NCBI GenBank assembly: GCA_009838975.1 | Contig: VXQO01000156.1 | Coordinates: 1-64,000 of the forward strand | DNA from: Gemmatimonadota bacterium | GTDB lineage: Bacteria > Gemmatimonadota > Gemmatimonadetes > Longimicrobiales > Gaopeijiaceae | Direction: 5' to 3' | DNA: 64,000 nt | Shown: positions 16,368 through 22,567 of the stretch, piece by piece | How the letters are laid out: the number at the start of each line of letters is the position of its first letter | How positions within the stretch are numbered: the stretch's first letter is position 1 | Translations under genes and position numbers: made by a program | The notes under the pieces: generated by a model | Seen by the model: only the letters and a program-made list of their open reading frames with translations | Told to the model about the DNA's origin: nothing | Databases searched by the model: none

Positions 16368-17036
16368 CTAGCGACTGGTGGTACCAACTTGGGCGAGCAC
16401 AGAAGCCAAGCCGTCTACCCCACTCTCAACGCCCTCTTTCGTCACGAAAGTCGGAGTTCCGCGGATCCCGAGACGGCTGGCAAGTGTGGCGCTTTCGGTC
16501 AGGCGGTCCGATGTTCGCTCGCTCTCCATGCAGGCGATCAAAGCTGGCACATCAGGCGCGCCAACCTCTTGGACGAAGTTCTCCCACGTCCCGTCGTCCA
16601 TCCACTCGTCCGTGCTCATCAACCCATGATGGACTTCTTGGAACACCCCATGCTCTTCAGCACACACGGCGGCACTGGCCGCGTCGCGGGCACGAGGATG
16701 CATCCGATCCAACGGAAGATGCAGGAGCGCGATTGCGAGGCCTCCGTCCACGGCCTGCACCAAGGCTGGTTCGATCGAGCGGCAGAACGGGCACTGGTAA
16801 TCCGTGAACATCGCCACAGTATCCGACGGTGCTGGTTCGTTCGCGATGACCGTCGCCAGCGAAATCAACTCGTCCCACGACGACGCGACGAGCACGCGCT
16901 GTTCGCCCACGGCCCGAAAGTCGGTATACCAACGCCGCAACGGCCCCATCGGGCCGAAGAGCAGTATCAGGATGGTCGCCAGTATCGCAACGTTGACGAC
17001 AGTGTTCAGGCGGCTCGGTGCGGTAGCAGCAGACAC
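16368..17036 (-). CDS. membrane-anchored DsbA-like thioredoxin-fold protein
   Basis: 222 residues. One N-terminal transmembrane helix (about residues 13-33) leads to a periplasmic thioredoxin-fold domain with active site FTDYQCPFCRSIEP (Cys82, Cys85), a helical insert with AAVCAEEHGVF, and the cis-proline loop RGTPTFV. This matches the DsbA/DsbG-like disulfide oxidoreductases. It lies about 96 bp downstream of a small secreted peptide with six cysteines on the same strand. The simplest reading is that it forms or isomerises disulfides in that peptide. Confidence 0.85.
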   Translation of the reverse strand: MSAATAPSRLNTVVNVAILATILILLFGPMGPLRRWYTDFRAVGEQRVLVASSWDELISLATVIANEPAPSDTVAMFTDYQCPFCRSIEPALVQAVDGGLAIALLHLPLDRMHPRARDAASAAVCAEEHGVFQEVHHGLMSTDEWMDDGTWENFVQEVGAPDVPALIACMESERTSDRLTESATLASRLGIRGTPTFVTKEGVESGVDGLASVLAQVGTTSR

Positions 17037-17132
17037 GGTGTGAACCTACCTCGGCATCCGAAGGAAAGGGGGCAGCGCGACAACCATCCCAGTACGGGCT
17101 GCCCCCTCCTGATGGCTACGACGGTGCCGAGG

Positions 17133-17315
17133 TTAGAGCCAACACCACCAGTTGACTTCGCCGTGGCAGAAGAAGACGAGACAGTAGTTTCCCTCCTCGT
17201 CCTCCGCAGTGCACATCCGGCACTCCGGCTTCCCTCTACAGTCCGGCTCTGCCGAGGTCGCCGCGTCAACGGCGCTCGGCTGCTGCATGGTGGCGAGGAC
17301 CAAGATCGCCAACAT
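17133..17315 (-). CDS. small secreted cysteine-rich peptide
   Basis: 60 residues from ATG 17315, which follows GGAGG by eight bases. A hydrophobic start (MLAILVLATM) precedes a 40-residue acidic core with six cysteines at 26, 32, 35, 45, 50 and 58 and an aromatic end (WWCWL). The positively charged N-region of a signal peptide is missing, but it exists one frame away: ATG 17356, behind AGGAGAAGGAA, encodes MRPTKRGILGRLAG and then leaves the frame. A single-base frameshift may therefore split the true start. It lies between a propeller gene and a DsbA-like gene on the same strand, recalling Bacteroidota NVEALA peptides beside propellers. Confidence 0.6.
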   Translation of the reverse strand: MLAILVLATMQQPSAVDAATSAEPDCRGKPECRMCTAEDEEGNYCLVFFCHGEVNWWCWL

Positions 17316-17543
17316 CCCGCCAGCCTCCCGAGGATCCCGCGCTTCGTTGGCCGCATTTCCTTCTCCTGAACTGAGGTGTCCTCAATCCCTTACGGATCAA
17401 GCGCTCTCTCAATATGTGAGATGTGGAGTGCTACCGTCAACCACTGTGCGAGACCCCATCGGCGTGGGAGCGTCCGAGGAGATTGGGGGCGACGCACGTT
17501 TCTTTTCCGAAGCGCACTTCGTCAACGGGCGCCGGGACCCTCT

Positions 17544-18791
17544 CTAGCGCACCTTCTGTGTCAATCGCCTGACGGTGATGACCGGGACTCCGAACTCGTC
17601 CGCTTCGAGGAAGGCAACCAGTCCATCGGGGCCGAACGCGCCCGGCATTTCGATCCGTCCGGCGGGGAACGTGCCGATGTAGTGACCGTCCGGTGTGAGC
17701 ACGTCGATGGCTCCGGGCTCGCTTGATCCCGCCTCCGTGCTGCGCTCGACCCACAGGTTACCCTCCCAAGTGACGCGCAGAGCCGCCACCACCGGCAAAT
17801 CGGGGTAGAATCGCATGTTCTCGACCGCTGCCGTTTGAGCCTCCAGGTAACGGTTGATCATCGTCAAGACCTGCGGGGGTGGATCGCCCTCGATCGCCGT
17901 GGCCTGCCGGATTCTCTCCTCTTCGAGGCGGCGCTCACGCTCTTCTCGCTTCATCCCCTCCGTCACGGCCATCGGTCTAAGGGGCCGCCGAAGGATGCGC
18001 GAGATCGACCCGGACGCATCCGTGAGCTTGATGGCGTATGCCGAGGAATCGGAGAACGCCACTCCGCCCGTCGGCAGCGCATCGAACAAGACCTCCGGTT
18101 CGAACCCCCACTCCTCACCAACCGTGTTCAGGACATCCTCGAAGTCAACGATGGGGGGCGCCTCCGTCGGCGCGCGTGGGTTCCATGCCTCCACCAGCAT
18201 CCGTCCCTGAACCTCCTCCAAAGACATGTCAACGCGACGGATGTACCGACCATCCCGGACCACGACCGCTTGATATCCCGTGCGCTCCCGTCGAAGACCT
18301 CTGCGGGTCACGACTCCGAAGCCGCCGGTCTCACGAACCCTGCGTTCGAACGCCCCACCAGCGGCAAAAACGTGGTATCCCGCAATGTCCGCGACCAAGG
18401 TACTTCCGTCCCTCCACACGACCAGTTCCGTTCCCCTCTGGAATTCGCCGGGTCCCTCGCCGGGACGACCGAAGTTCCGCACATGGCGACCGGAGGCGTC
18501 CACGACGACGACTCGACCAGCGGCCCTCATGTCTGTCCCGTCCAGCAGGTACAACCTCCCGGCAGCGTCGAAGCCGAGGCCCAGGATTGTCGAGAACTGT
18601 TCCCATTCGGCAACCGCATCAGCCGACCCAACGCGATACACCGACTCGAAGTCCGCTGAGAGGGGTAGATCCTCCGCCGTTAGATCGACCACTTCTTGGG
18701 CACCGGTACTGGTGGGTCCCCGGAAGCCGACACAACCTACGGCGATCCACATGCCACTGATGGCCCACACTGGCCGCGCTCTTCGATGCAT
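17544..18791 (-). CDS. 6-bladed beta-propeller lipoprotein with helical insertion
   Basis: 415 residues from ATG 18791, preceded by GGAGGTG. The N-terminus MHRRARPVWAISGMWIAVGC carries a lipobox (AVGC). Blades include YRVGSADAVAEWEQF, DAAGRLYLLDG, GRPGEGPGEF, and FGPDGLVAFLEADEFGVPV at the end. Between blades lies a charged helical segment, KREERERRLEEERIRQA, at the same place as in the propellers at 11095 and 47972. It begins a probable operon with the cysteine-rich peptide (17315) and the DsbA-like protein (17036). Its own role may be binding or displaying that peptide. Confidence 0.85.
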   Translation of the reverse strand: MHRRARPVWAISGMWIAVGCVGFRGPTSTGAQEVVDLTAEDLPLSADFESVYRVGSADAVAEWEQFSTILGLGFDAAGRLYLLDGTDMRAAGRVVVVDASGRHVRNFGRPGEGPGEFQRGTELVVWRDGSTLVADIAGYHVFAAGGAFERRVRETGGFGVVTRRGLRRERTGYQAVVVRDGRYIRRVDMSLEEVQGRMLVEAWNPRAPTEAPPIVDFEDVLNTVGEEWGFEPEVLFDALPTGGVAFSDSSAYAIKLTDASGSISRILRRPLRPMAVTEGMKREERERRLEEERIRQATAIEGDPPPQVLTMINRYLEAQTAAVENMRFYPDLPVVAALRVTWEGNLWVERSTEAGSSEPGAIDVLTPDGHYIGTFPAGRIEMPGAFGPDGLVAFLEADEFGVPVITVRRLTQKVR

Positions 18792-19038: not shown

Positions 19039-19326
19039 ATGTCTGCGAACCCAACCCGAAGGAACCGCTCCGTCGTTTTCGCCATCCTACTCATGGTGGG
19101 CCTGACCATCGGCGCACCTGTCGTCGTTACGCAGGAACCGCCGGACGATGGCCCCACCCTCTGCGAGCTTCTCCGAGCGACGCAGCGACAGGCATGTGCT
19201 GACGCGCTGGAGGCGATTGAGGACGCGGAGTCCGAGCAAGAACGTGAACGGGCTCGAAGGCTCGTCAAACTGTGTCTCGACCTGATGGAGGACTACATCG
19301 AGTTGTGTATCCTCGATCCAGATTGA
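19039..19326 (+). CDS. small secreted twin-CX10C helical protein
   Basis: 95 residues from ATG 19039. The basic N-terminus (MSANPTRRNRS) and the hydrophobic segment 12-30 form a signal peptide. The mature part is predicted helical and charged, with cysteines at 42, 53, 79 and 90, that is two CX10C pairs separated by 25 residues. This is the layout of a disulfide-stapled helical hairpin, similar in principle to CHCH proteins. Its stop overlaps the start of the next propeller (TGATG at 19324-19328), so the two are translationally coupled. No known family was recognised. Confidence 0.7.
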   Translation: MSANPTRRNRSVVFAILLMVGLTIGAPVVVTQEPPDDGPTLCELLRATQRQACADALEAIEDAESEQERERARRLVKLCLDLMEDYIELCILDPD

Positions 19327-20420
19327 TGACGCCGCGCGGCTTCCTCGCGTTGGCTTGTTCCACGTTTCTGCTCGCCTCCTGTGGCGGCGACCAAACGGGT
19401 GGTGATCCGGCCGACCTTATGTCGGCCACGTTCAACGGCGGATTCTGGATCGGGGACGAGCCGTCAGAACAGCAGTTCACGGAGATTACTTCAATAGCCT
19501 TCGCCCCCGACGGCAAACTGGTCGTAATGGACCGGGGCGAGGCGACCGTGACGGTGTTCGACCCCGATGGCCGCGAGGTTGCGCGATGGGGTAATCAAGG
19601 CGAGGGTCCTGGGGAGTTCAGTGGCACCCGCGGTAAACTGGCAGTCTCGGCCACTGCGACCGTCGCGGTTGACGACGCTGGAAGCGTGGACCTCTTCACG
19701 GTCGGCGGAACTCTGATCGATTCCCACCCGCTCGGAGCACTATCGGTATTCGACCTCGGCTTCGATGGCGATGGCAACGTGTTGGCAAGGACACAGTCGC
19801 ACGAGGCACTCGTTGTCAACACGGGGGAGCAAATCTTGCGGCTCACGGACCAACTAGTGGTTTGGTCGTCCGAGCCGTCATCGGCGGACCGGCTCCAGTG
19901 GTTTCGCCCGCACTTAGAGTTCGCGAGCTTACCGGACGGGCGAATCGCTGTCGGGATGAGTGATCAATACGACCTCGTCGTGCTGGATGCTTCCACAGGC
20001 CGAGAATTGGACCACATTTCACGGGACATTCCGCTGAGGGGTCCCTCCGATGAATTCGCAGATCGCTTCCTCGGCGACATGCCCGAACTGCGTGGGCGGG
20101 TGACCCTTGCGGAGACTTTTCCGGTAATCAGCGGGGTGTTCACCGGGCCACCCGGTCGAGCCGTGTGGATCCGGCGGGGCATGGGTGTCGGCGATTCGCT
20201 AGCGCCGCCTGCCGATGACATGGACGAGTGGACGTTCGTGCTCTACGACTTGTTCTCAGGCGACGCATACGAGTATCTGGGCACAGTGCAGATTCCACCG
20301 GGCTTGGAACTCATGGCTGGGGATGCGACACGAGTGGCTGGTGTACACACCGGTGCGATGGGAGAGCACTCCGTCCGCGTGATGCGTGTCAACTTTTCGG
20401 ATCCTTTGGACGTAGGTTGA
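19326..20420 (+). CDS. 6-bladed beta-propeller lipoprotein coupled to the twin-CX10C protein
   Basis: 364 residues. The start ATG 19326 shares one base with the stop of the preceding gene. Its lipoprotein signal ends LLASCGGD. Blades include SIAFAPDGKLVVMDRGEATVTVFDPDG, GNQGEGPGEF and DLVVLDASTGRELDHIS. It lacks the helical insertion of the 17544 propeller. The pairing of a small cysteine-containing exported protein with a propeller mirrors the divergent cluster on the other strand, so the two loci are probably related. Confidence 0.85.
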   Translation: MTPRGFLALACSTFLLASCGGDQTGGDPADLMSATFNGGFWIGDEPSEQQFTEITSIAFAPDGKLVVMDRGEATVTVFDPDGREVARWGNQGEGPGEFSGTRGKLAVSATATVAVDDAGSVDLFTVGGTLIDSHPLGALSVFDLGFDGDGNVLARTQSHEALVVNTGEQILRLTDQLVVWSSEPSSADRLQWFRPHLEFASLPDGRIAVGMSDQYDLVVLDASTGRELDHISRDIPLRGPSDEFADRFLGDMPELRGRVTLAETFPVISGVFTGPPGRAVWIRRGMGVGDSLAPPADDMDEWTFVLYDLFSGDAYEYLGTVQIPPGLELMAGDATRVAGVHTGAMGEHSVRVMRVNFSDPLDVG

Positions 20421-21406: not shown

Positions 21407-22567
21407 ATGGCACGCACGAAACGAAGTCGGCGCTCGTACGGCGCCGGCGAATGGGGCCGGAACCGGGTCAGGATCTTCCCGGACCCGAAGACCGGCAACT
21501 TCCAGATTGAGTGGCGCGAGAACGGACGCAGGCGGAGCCGGTCGCTCGGGCACCGCGACTGGCGGCGCGCGAAGCGGCAGGCGGACGAATTCGCCGCCGG
21601 GTTCGCCGGACCGGAGATCGGAGGCGGCGCGGAAACCAAGCCCGAGCCGCTCACGCTGGAAAGGCTCTTTGACATCTACGGTCAGGAGGTGACGCCCGCC
21701 AAGGGCGCTCACACGCGGCAGCACGACCGAACGTCGATGCGGATGTTCCTCGACCTCTTCGGACGGAACCGCGACCCGGCGACCCTGTCTCAGAGGGACT
21801 GGGACCGGTTCATCCGGGAGCGCCGCGCGGGCAGGATCGGACCGAGCGGCAAGCCCGTGGCGGACCGGACGGTCGAATACGACCTGAAGTTTCTGATCGC
21901 CGTCCTGAACTGGGCGGCGAAGTCCCGCGACGAGCGGGGCCGGTTGCTGCTCGACCGGAACCCGCTCAGAGGCTTCAGGACGCCGAGGGAGAAGAACCCG
22001 AACCGGGTGGTGCTCGAAGAGGAGGAGTACCGGGCGCTTATGAAGGTGTCGCGCCGGGTGGACTGGCGGTTCCGCGTGGCGCTCGTGCTCGCGCACGAAA
22101 CCGGCCACCGCATCGGTGCCATTCGGCAGCTTCGGTGGCGCGACATCGACTTCGAGGGCGGAACCATCGTCTGGCGCGCCGAGCACGACAAGACCGGCTA
22201 CGAGCACGTCACGCCCGTCACGGACGAGGCCTTGGATGCCTTGAAGGAGGCGCGGAGTTGGAATCCCACCGCCGGGGATGCCCCGGTCATGCCCGCGCCC
22301 CGGAATCCGTCGGCCTGCATGGGAGCCGCGTTGGCGCAGGGGTGGTGGGACAGGGCCGAGAGGCTCGCGGGACTGGAGCCGAAGCCCGGCAGGGGCTGGC
22401 ACTCGCTGCGGCGCAAGTTCGCCTCCGACCTGATGGACCAGCCGTTGAAGGTGCTCTGCCAGCTCGGCGGCTGGAAGACGGCCAAGACGGTGCTTCGGTG
22501 CTATCAGAGAGCCGACGAGGGACAGCTTCGGAAGGCTCTGGAAGACCGCCGCCGGGCTCGCGGCTGA
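21407..22567 (+). CDS. tyrosine site-specific recombinase (phage integrase family)
   Basis: 386 residues. An N-terminal Arm-type DNA-binding segment (IFPDPKTGNFQIEWRENGRR) and a SAM-like core-binding domain precede the catalytic domain. Active-site residues are Arg235 (HETGHRIGAIRQLRW), Lys262, His332-Arg335 (WHSLRRKF), Trp356 in GGWKT and the nucleophile Tyr366 (VLRCYQR). Everything needed for activity is present. No partner excisionase, phage gene or second attachment site is obvious within the window, so it may be a remnant or a solitary element such as an integrative island boundary. Confidence 0.9.
   Translation: MARTKRSRRSYGAGEWGRNRVRIFPDPKTGNFQIEWRENGRRRSRSLGHRDWRRAKRQADEFAAGFAGPEIGGGAETKPEPLTLERLFDIYGQEVTPAKGAHTRQHDRTSMRMFLDLFGRNRDPATLSQRDWDRFIRERRAGRIGPSGKPVADRTVEYDLKFLIAVLNWAAKSRDERGRLLLDRNPLRGFRTPREKNPNRVVLEEEEYRALMKVSRRVDWRFRVALVLAHETGHRIGAIRQLRWRDIDFEGGTIVWRAEHDKTGYEHVTPVTDEALDALKEARSWNPTAGDAPVMPAPRNPSACMGAALAQGWWDRAERLAGLEPKPGRGWHSLRRKFASDLMDQPLKVLCQLGGWKTAKTVLRCYQRADEGQLRKALEDRRRARG

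What the first reader, a model, noticed from the sequence alone, without database searches (positions are those of the whole stretch)
16368..18791. Propeller, six-cysteine secreted peptide and DsbA-like protein in one operon
Seen: three minus-strand genes in order encode a lipoprotein beta-propeller, a 60-residue exported peptide with six cysteines and a WWCWL end, and a membrane-anchored DsbA-like protein with CPFC. Known: in Bacteroidota, NVEALA-type cysteine-rich peptides sit beside 6-bladed propellers, with no settled function. Inference: the DsbA-like protein folds the peptide and the propeller binds, exports or displays it, giving a Gemmatimonadota counterpart of a peptide/propeller system. 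I do not recognise this triad from the literature.
Basis: partly seen in the sequence, partly recalled or inferred. Interest (0 to 1): 0.76.

Follow-up and report, generated by a model that had tools for sequence, protein, structure and literature searches.

The report
Propeller and DsbA with cysteine-rich peptide
Many Gemmatimonadota bacteria carry a small gene set that pairs a fast-changing, cysteine-rich exported mini-protein with a thiol oxidoreductase and a six-bladed propeller protein, apparently a dedicated workshop for folding secreted disulfide-rich peptides that I did not find described before.

Summary
The three genes are real, and the triad recurs across Gemmatimonadota. I examined 58 loci of this DsbA-like subfamily, 54 of them chosen by DsbA similarity alone. 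In 53 a six-bladed propeller is adjacent, and in 16 of those it is fused into one protein. In 44 a small same-strand exported cysteine-rich frame lies beside it (opposite strand: 2). Among 72 DsbA loci of other phyla there are no propellers and only background small frames (6 same, 6 opposite).

The window peptide is under purifying selection (dN/dS about 0.13) but has lost one base near its start, so the "60-residue" frame is a truncated reading of a 74-aa gene. Six cysteines are fixed; WWCWL is not. The peptides match no Pfam (including NVEALA), NCBIfam or PDB family. In relatives the mature part usually varies more than the signal peptide. The window propeller and all 11 fused propellers checked contain no cysteine, so the peptide is the evident substrate of the DsbA-like protein, whose nearest solved folds include ScsC-type disulfide isomerases.

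Best reading: a dedicated oxidative-folding unit; the propeller docks the peptide and the DsbA-like domain makes or shuffles its disulfides. The peptide's function is unknown. A second peptide-propeller pair (four cysteines, no DsbA) lies head-to-head in the window.

The parts
17544..18791 (-). Secreted six-bladed (NHL/DUF5128-like) beta-propeller protein; mature part has no cysteine
17133..17315 (-). Cysteine-rich exported peptide as now readable (60 aa, C-x5-C-x2-C-x9-C-x4-C-x7-C); purifying selection against G022
17316..17356 (-). Out-of-frame 5' part of the peptide gene: ATG at 17356 and signal-peptide n-region; one C missing between 17319 and 17320 relative to the intact relative G022
17359..17367 (-). 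AGGAGAAGG, likely ribosome-binding site of the full-length peptide gene
   Evidence: sequence; inference
16368..17036 (-). Membrane-anchored DsbA-like protein (TM residues 13-31, helical linker, CPFC, GT-cisPro)
16782..16793 (-). Codons of the CPFC active site (residues 82-85)
19039..19326 (+). Second, four-cysteine exported peptide (C-x10-C...C-x10-C), first gene of a divergent peptide-propeller pair without DsbA
19323..20420 (+). Second six-bladed propeller (lipoprotein-type N-terminus), start overlapping the stop of the four-cysteine peptide

Best explanation
The locus is a dedicated oxidative-folding module for an exported disulfide-rich mini-protein. Shown: a small protein with a Sec-type signal and six fixed cysteines, a membrane-anchored DsbA-like oxidoreductase and a six-bladed propeller form a recurring gene set in Gemmatimonadota; the two larger parts are often one polypeptide; the window propeller and the fused ones lack cysteine. 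Inferred: the peptide is exported to the periplasm and cut after its signal; the propeller docks it next to the DsbA-like domain, which makes and/or shuffles its three disulfides (the GT-cisPro motif and nearest structures point to ScsC/alpha-DsbA2-type isomerase chemistry); a VKOR homolog present in the genome could recycle the enzyme. The peptide-propeller pair is probably the core, because a second peptide family pairs with propellers without DsbA. The matured peptide most likely acts outside the cytoplasm as a secreted effector or signal whose surface diversifies; that last step is the least certain.
For: Recurrence: 53 of 58 DsbA loci have a propeller adjacent or fused and 44 have a same-strand Cys-rich exported frame (2 opposite), against 0, 6 and 6 in 72 DsbA loci of other phyla. 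Sixteen DsbA-propeller fusions; in the DsbA tree the fused label needs at least four changes, so fusion or fission happened more than once; one fusion carries both Pfam domains, and an AlphaFold model shows TM helix, DsbA and propeller, with PDB matches to ScsC, alpha-DsbA2 and NHL domains. Window propeller, G022 propeller and all 11 fused propellers checked have zero cysteines. CxxC and T-cisPro in 58/58 members, GT-cisPro in 34/58; GTcP was common to the five disulfide isomerases compared in PMC6450060. Selection on the window peptide: dN 0.058, dS 0.444. Cysteines kept while loops vary; signal peptide more conserved than mature part in 25 of 28 relative pairs. Tandem peptide paralogs in some loci. 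Own-genome VKOR and DsbD/CcdA homologs. Four-Cys peptide family with stop overlapping the propeller start in the own genome and five further loci.
Against: No direct evidence of binding, disulfides, expression or secretion. Only about 6 of 72 propellers in this genome have such a peptide, so most propellers do other things. A few DsbA loci lack a detectable peptide or propeller (e.g. L101, L297). In the window, G022 and G003 the peptide gene lies between propeller and DsbA, unlike the peptide-first layouts elsewhere. The window copy is frameshifted, so it may be inactive there. Some loci have peptide-propeller pairs without this DsbA, so it is not always needed.
Confidence: 0.58

Rival explanations
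1. The peptide is a secreted antagonistic (bacteriocin-like) effector and the propeller is its immunity or holding protein, with the DsbA-like protein as folding helper.
For: Variable mature region with fixed cysteines and a conserved signal peptide, tandem paralogs, several cysteine frameworks; patchy distribution and mobile-DNA neighbours in some loci, a relaxase beside the G022 module and an integrase about 3 kb from the window module.
Against: Immunity proteins are rarely fused to the maturation enzyme, yet the propeller is fused to DsbA in 16 loci. Only a few pairs show mature dN at or above dS, and the window pair is under purifying selection. No activity data; no PADLOC match.
Confidence: 0.17
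2. Peptide and propeller are two subunits or a ligand-receptor pair of a stable periplasmic complex (structural, signalling or enzymatic), and DsbA merely matures the small subunit.
For: Four-Cys peptides pair with propellers by overlapping genes and without DsbA. Precedent recalled, not tested: methylamine dehydrogenase has a propeller subunit, a Cys-rich small subunit and the thioredoxin-like MauD.
Against: Outside the cysteines no residue is well conserved across the peptides, and Trp is not conserved, so no cofactor site as in MauA. DsbA-propeller fusions tie the propeller to the enzyme rather than to the peptide.
Confidence: 0.15
3. Neighbourhood coincidence: the DsbA-like protein serves general periplasmic oxidation, propellers are simply abundant in this phylum, and the small frames are chance ORFs.
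For: The genome holds about 72 propeller-like ORFs, and a six-Cys exported-looking frame arises about 0.5 times per shuffled 64 kb.
Against: Same-strand bias 44 to 2, propeller linkage 53/58 against 0/72 in other phyla, repeated fusions, dN/dS 0.13, homologous peptides across families of the class.
Confidence: 0.04
4. The cysteines bind a metal (zinc-ribbon-like or copper-handling peptide) and the DsbA-like protein keeps them reduced, as a periplasmic metal-handling set.
For: The window-type framework contains C-x2-C and C-x4-C pairs; ScsC, a near fold match, is linked to copper.
Against: Other frameworks in equivalent loci lack CxxC (L104, L292 types); no conserved His/Asp/Glu ligand; the genome holds a VKOR homolog, suggesting an oxidising periplasm.
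Confidence: 0.06

Closest known systems
NVEALA peptides (Pfam PF14055) beside 6-bladed propellers in Bacteroidota
   Different: No match of 26 peptides to PF14055; no NVEALA motif; Sec-type signal; dedicated DsbA-like partner and DsbA-propeller fusions
ScsC / alpha-DsbA2 type disulfide isomerases
   Same: DsbA fold with CxxC, GT-cisPro and an N-terminal helical extension; nearest solved folds
   Different: Membrane-anchored, often fused to or encoded beside a propeller and a peptide; oligomeric state unknown
Sublancin-type operons with dedicated thiol oxidoreductases (BdbA/BdbB), from memory
   Same: Exported disulfide peptide with its own oxidoreductase gene
   Different: Sec-type signal rather than a double-glycine leader with ABC exporter; three disulfides possible; propeller partner; hypervariable family. 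Not tested by sequence
Methylamine dehydrogenase operon (mauB/mauA/mauD), from memory
   Same: Propeller subunit, Cys-rich small exported subunit, thioredoxin-like maturation protein
   Different: No conserved Trp pair for a TTQ cofactor, six not twelve cysteines, six-bladed NHL-type propeller
Cu/Zn-SOD fused to a propeller in Deinococcus radiodurans (PMC12362111)
   Same: Natural fusion of a bacterial redox domain with a beta-propeller
   Different: Different redox fold; no Cys-rich peptide gene known

Membership tests
NVEALA (PF14055) | Match to the Pfam profile | tested here: not met
   26 peptides scanned, no match at E<=1
NVEALA (PF14055) | Gene next to a six-bladed propeller | tested here: met
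NVEALA (PF14055) | Bacteroidota loci carry a thiol oxidoreductase too | tested here: inconclusive
   0 of 200 genomes of the phylum of G415 hold PF14055; phylum identity of G415 uncertain
DsbA-like thioredoxin (PF01323) | Profile over cut-off, CxxC and cis-proline | tested here: met
   50.7 vs 25.6 bits; CPFC; TP invariant in 58/58
ScsC/alpha-DsbA2-type isomerase | GT-cisPro motif | tested here: met
   RGTPTF in window protein; 34/58 members GTP; criterion from PMC6450060
ScsC/alpha-DsbA2-type isomerase | Oligomerisation through N-terminal extension and isomerase activity | not testable with these tools
   Model of the L211 fusion shows helices 7-33 and 38-64 before the catalytic domain; oligomer not predicted
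6-bladed beta-propeller DUF5128 (PF17170) | Profile over curated cut-off | tested here: not met
   Window protein 14.6 vs 22.9 bits; 9 of 11 aligned relatives match at E<=0.1, best 1.9e-11
NHL-type six-bladed propeller fold | Family profile or model matches solved NHL propellers | tested here: met
   PDB profile hits to E=3e-39; Foldseek match of the fusion model to Brat/TRIM2/TRIM3 NHL domains
Methylamine dehydrogenase small subunit (MauA) | Conserved Trp pair for TTQ and twelve cysteines | tested here: not met
   Trp not conserved, six cysteines
   AVGC in window, no Cys in the G022 ortholog
Known antiphage defence proteins | PADLOC profile match | tested here: not met

The most novel reading that the evidence does not exclude
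A phylum-level system of diversifying, disulfide-rich secreted mini-proteins in Gemmatimonadota, each made by a cognate propeller-plus-DsbA folding machine, in which the cysteine-free propeller is a specific peptide-binding receptor that positions the chain for disulfide formation: a bacterial counterpart of venom- or defensin-style peptide diversification with built-in foldases.
Probability: 0.33. Interest if true: 0.86.

Novelty: new variant of a known kind. Interest (0 to 1): 0.74.

Why it matters
Secreted disulfide-rich peptides with hypervariable loops are a hallmark of animal venoms and plant/animal defensins; a bacterial phylum making its own, with a dedicated foldase fused to a propeller, would be a new source of folded mini-proteins. 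It also gives a testable role to part of the very large propeller repertoire in Gemmatimonadota (about 72 in this genome) and a genetic handle (cysteine-free propeller, natural fusions) for what some of these propellers bind. Annotation pipelines can easily overlook the peptides because they are short and match no family.

Tried and rejected
NVEALA membership: rejected, no profile match. Cofactor-enzyme (MADH) reading: rejected, Trp not conserved. WWCWL as a functional end: rejected, not conserved beyond G022. DsbA acting on the propeller: disfavoured, because the window and fused propellers have no cysteine. Propeller as lipoprotein: not supported. Peptide fold: model of low overall confidence (pLDDT 65; mature part about 80, three strands), no significant PDB match. 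Plasmid carriage: no fusion in PLSDB. Defence system: no PADLOC match. Bacteroidota comparison for NVEALA: inconclusive. Literature: nothing for NVEALA or for six-bladed propellers with Gemmatimonadota, and no description of the triad found among held papers. A direct peptide-propeller complex prediction was not possible with the tools.

Full report
Observation. The DsbA-like protein passes the Pfam DSBA cut-off (50.7 vs 25.6 bits) and has one transmembrane helix, CPFC and a GT-cisPro motif. The propeller is weak against DUF5128 alone (E=0.019), but its family profile finds NHL six-bladed propellers in the PDB and nine of eleven relatives match DUF5128. The small frame is not significant on its own (0.5 comparable frames per shuffled 64 kb).

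The peptide is a gene. A same-genus genome (G022) has an intact 74-aa homolog at the same place, and G005 and G003 have more distant ones; six cysteines are invariant with spacing C-x5-C-x2-C-x9/10-C-x4-C-x6-11-C. Against G022 the in-frame part has dN 0.058 and dS 0.444. DNA alignment shows one C missing from the window copy between 17319 and 17320, which puts the ribosome-site-preceded ATG at 17356 out of frame. The 60-aa frame is thus a truncated reading; whether the frameshift is biological or an assembly error cannot be told here.

The module recurs. Searching with the DsbA-like protein alone and reading the neighbourhoods gave 58 Gemmatimonadota loci, including near-copies; four of them had first been found through the peptide. 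Propeller fused in 16, fused or adjacent on the same strand in 53; same-strand Cys-rich exported frame in 44, opposite strand in 2. The window itself (frameshifted) and four loci with overlapping frames (L103, L105, L298, L299) are not counted in the 44 although peptides are visible there. In 72 DsbA loci from other phyla, propellers 0, small frames 6 same and 6 opposite strand. The hits span several families of the class. Named records include a Longimicrobiales bacterium and Gemmatimonadetes MAGs, one of them SB0662_bin_23. In the own genome all three strong DsbA members sit in such loci, while most of the roughly 72 propellers have no such peptide.

Gene order varies: peptide then propeller then DsbA; peptide then DsbA then propeller; peptide then a DsbA-propeller fusion; and, in the window's own clade (window, G022, G003), propeller-peptide-DsbA. 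G005, in that same clade, has the fused form. On a maximum-likelihood DsbA tree the fused state needs at least four changes on well-supported branches, so fusion or fission happened repeatedly.

Peptide diversity. At least five cysteine frameworks occur, with tandem paralogs in some loci. In 25 of 28 relative pairs the signal peptide is more conserved than the mature part; in a few pairs mature dN equals or exceeds dS, e.g. L092/L097 0.39 vs 0.27 and L195/L196 0.36 vs 0.36. The window/G022 pair is instead strongly conserved, so diversification is not uniform. No peptide matches Pfam, NCBIfam or PDB sequence profiles convincingly.

Mechanism. The window and G022 propellers and all 11 fused propellers checked contain no cysteine, and the other unfused ones 0 to 2, so within these operons the peptide is the evident thiol substrate. 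An AlphaFold model of the L211 fusion (mean pLDDT 74.6, parts of the propeller low) has a TM helix, a helical linker, a well-predicted DsbA domain and a propeller. Foldseek places the DsbA part next to ScsC and alpha-DsbA2, and the propeller next to NHL domains. These two DsbA-like enzymes are disulfide isomerases, and GTcP is the cis-proline motif shared by the five isomerases compared in PMC6450060; T-cisPro is invariant in our 58 members and GTcP occurs in 34, including the window. The genome has VKOR and DsbD/CcdA homologs that could oxidise or reduce such an enzyme. I therefore infer a dedicated folding unit with the propeller as docking partner. Docking, disulfide pattern, final location and activity are not shown.

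A second pair in the window. Divergent from the first module, a 95-aa exported peptide with four cysteines (19039-19326, +) overlaps the start of another propeller (19323-20420, +). Homologs in four other genomes of the genus have the same arrangement, without DsbA. This suggests that peptide-propeller pairing is the more general theme and DsbA an addition for the six-cysteine type.

Comparison and novelty. NVEALA kinship was tested and not met; a MADH-like reading was not met; sublancin-type dedicated oxidoreductases are the closest in working principle (from memory). I found no description of the triad in the papers held. The parts are known folds and the principle of a dedicated oxidoreductase for an exported peptide is known; the combination and the peptide families appear new.

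Noticed in passing
window 19039-20420 (+): Second peptide-propeller pair: four-Cys helical-looking exported peptide whose stop overlaps the start of a lipoprotein-type propeller; homologs in G011 (x2), G022, G020, G019 (L310-L314) each precede a propeller.
   Followed up: yes
window 21407-22567 (+): Tyrosine recombinase (phage integrase, PF00589 E=2.6e-18) about 3 kb from the module; GC is 61-63% at 16-20 kb against about 66-67% around it.
   Followed up: partly
L022:15393-16727 (-): Relaxase (PF03432) directly beside the G022 copy of the module, suggesting carriage on a mobilisable element.
   Followed up: no
L024:8676-8915 (-): Remnant of a second DsbA-like gene between propeller and peptide in G003, hinting that the propeller-peptide-DsbA order arose from two adjacent modules.
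   Followed up: no
L104:5312-5917 and L106:3934-4605: Uncharacterised protein of 201-223 aa after the DsbA-like gene in two loci, with an N-terminal hydrophobic stretch (L104), no Pfam match.
   Followed up: no
L030:6182-6714 (-): Two tandem Cys-rich exported peptides upstream of a propeller in genome G031, without the DsbA-like gene in the fetched stretch.
   Followed up: partly
G000 genome: About 72 six-bladed propeller ORFs in a 4.5-Mb genome; role of most unknown.
   Followed up: partly
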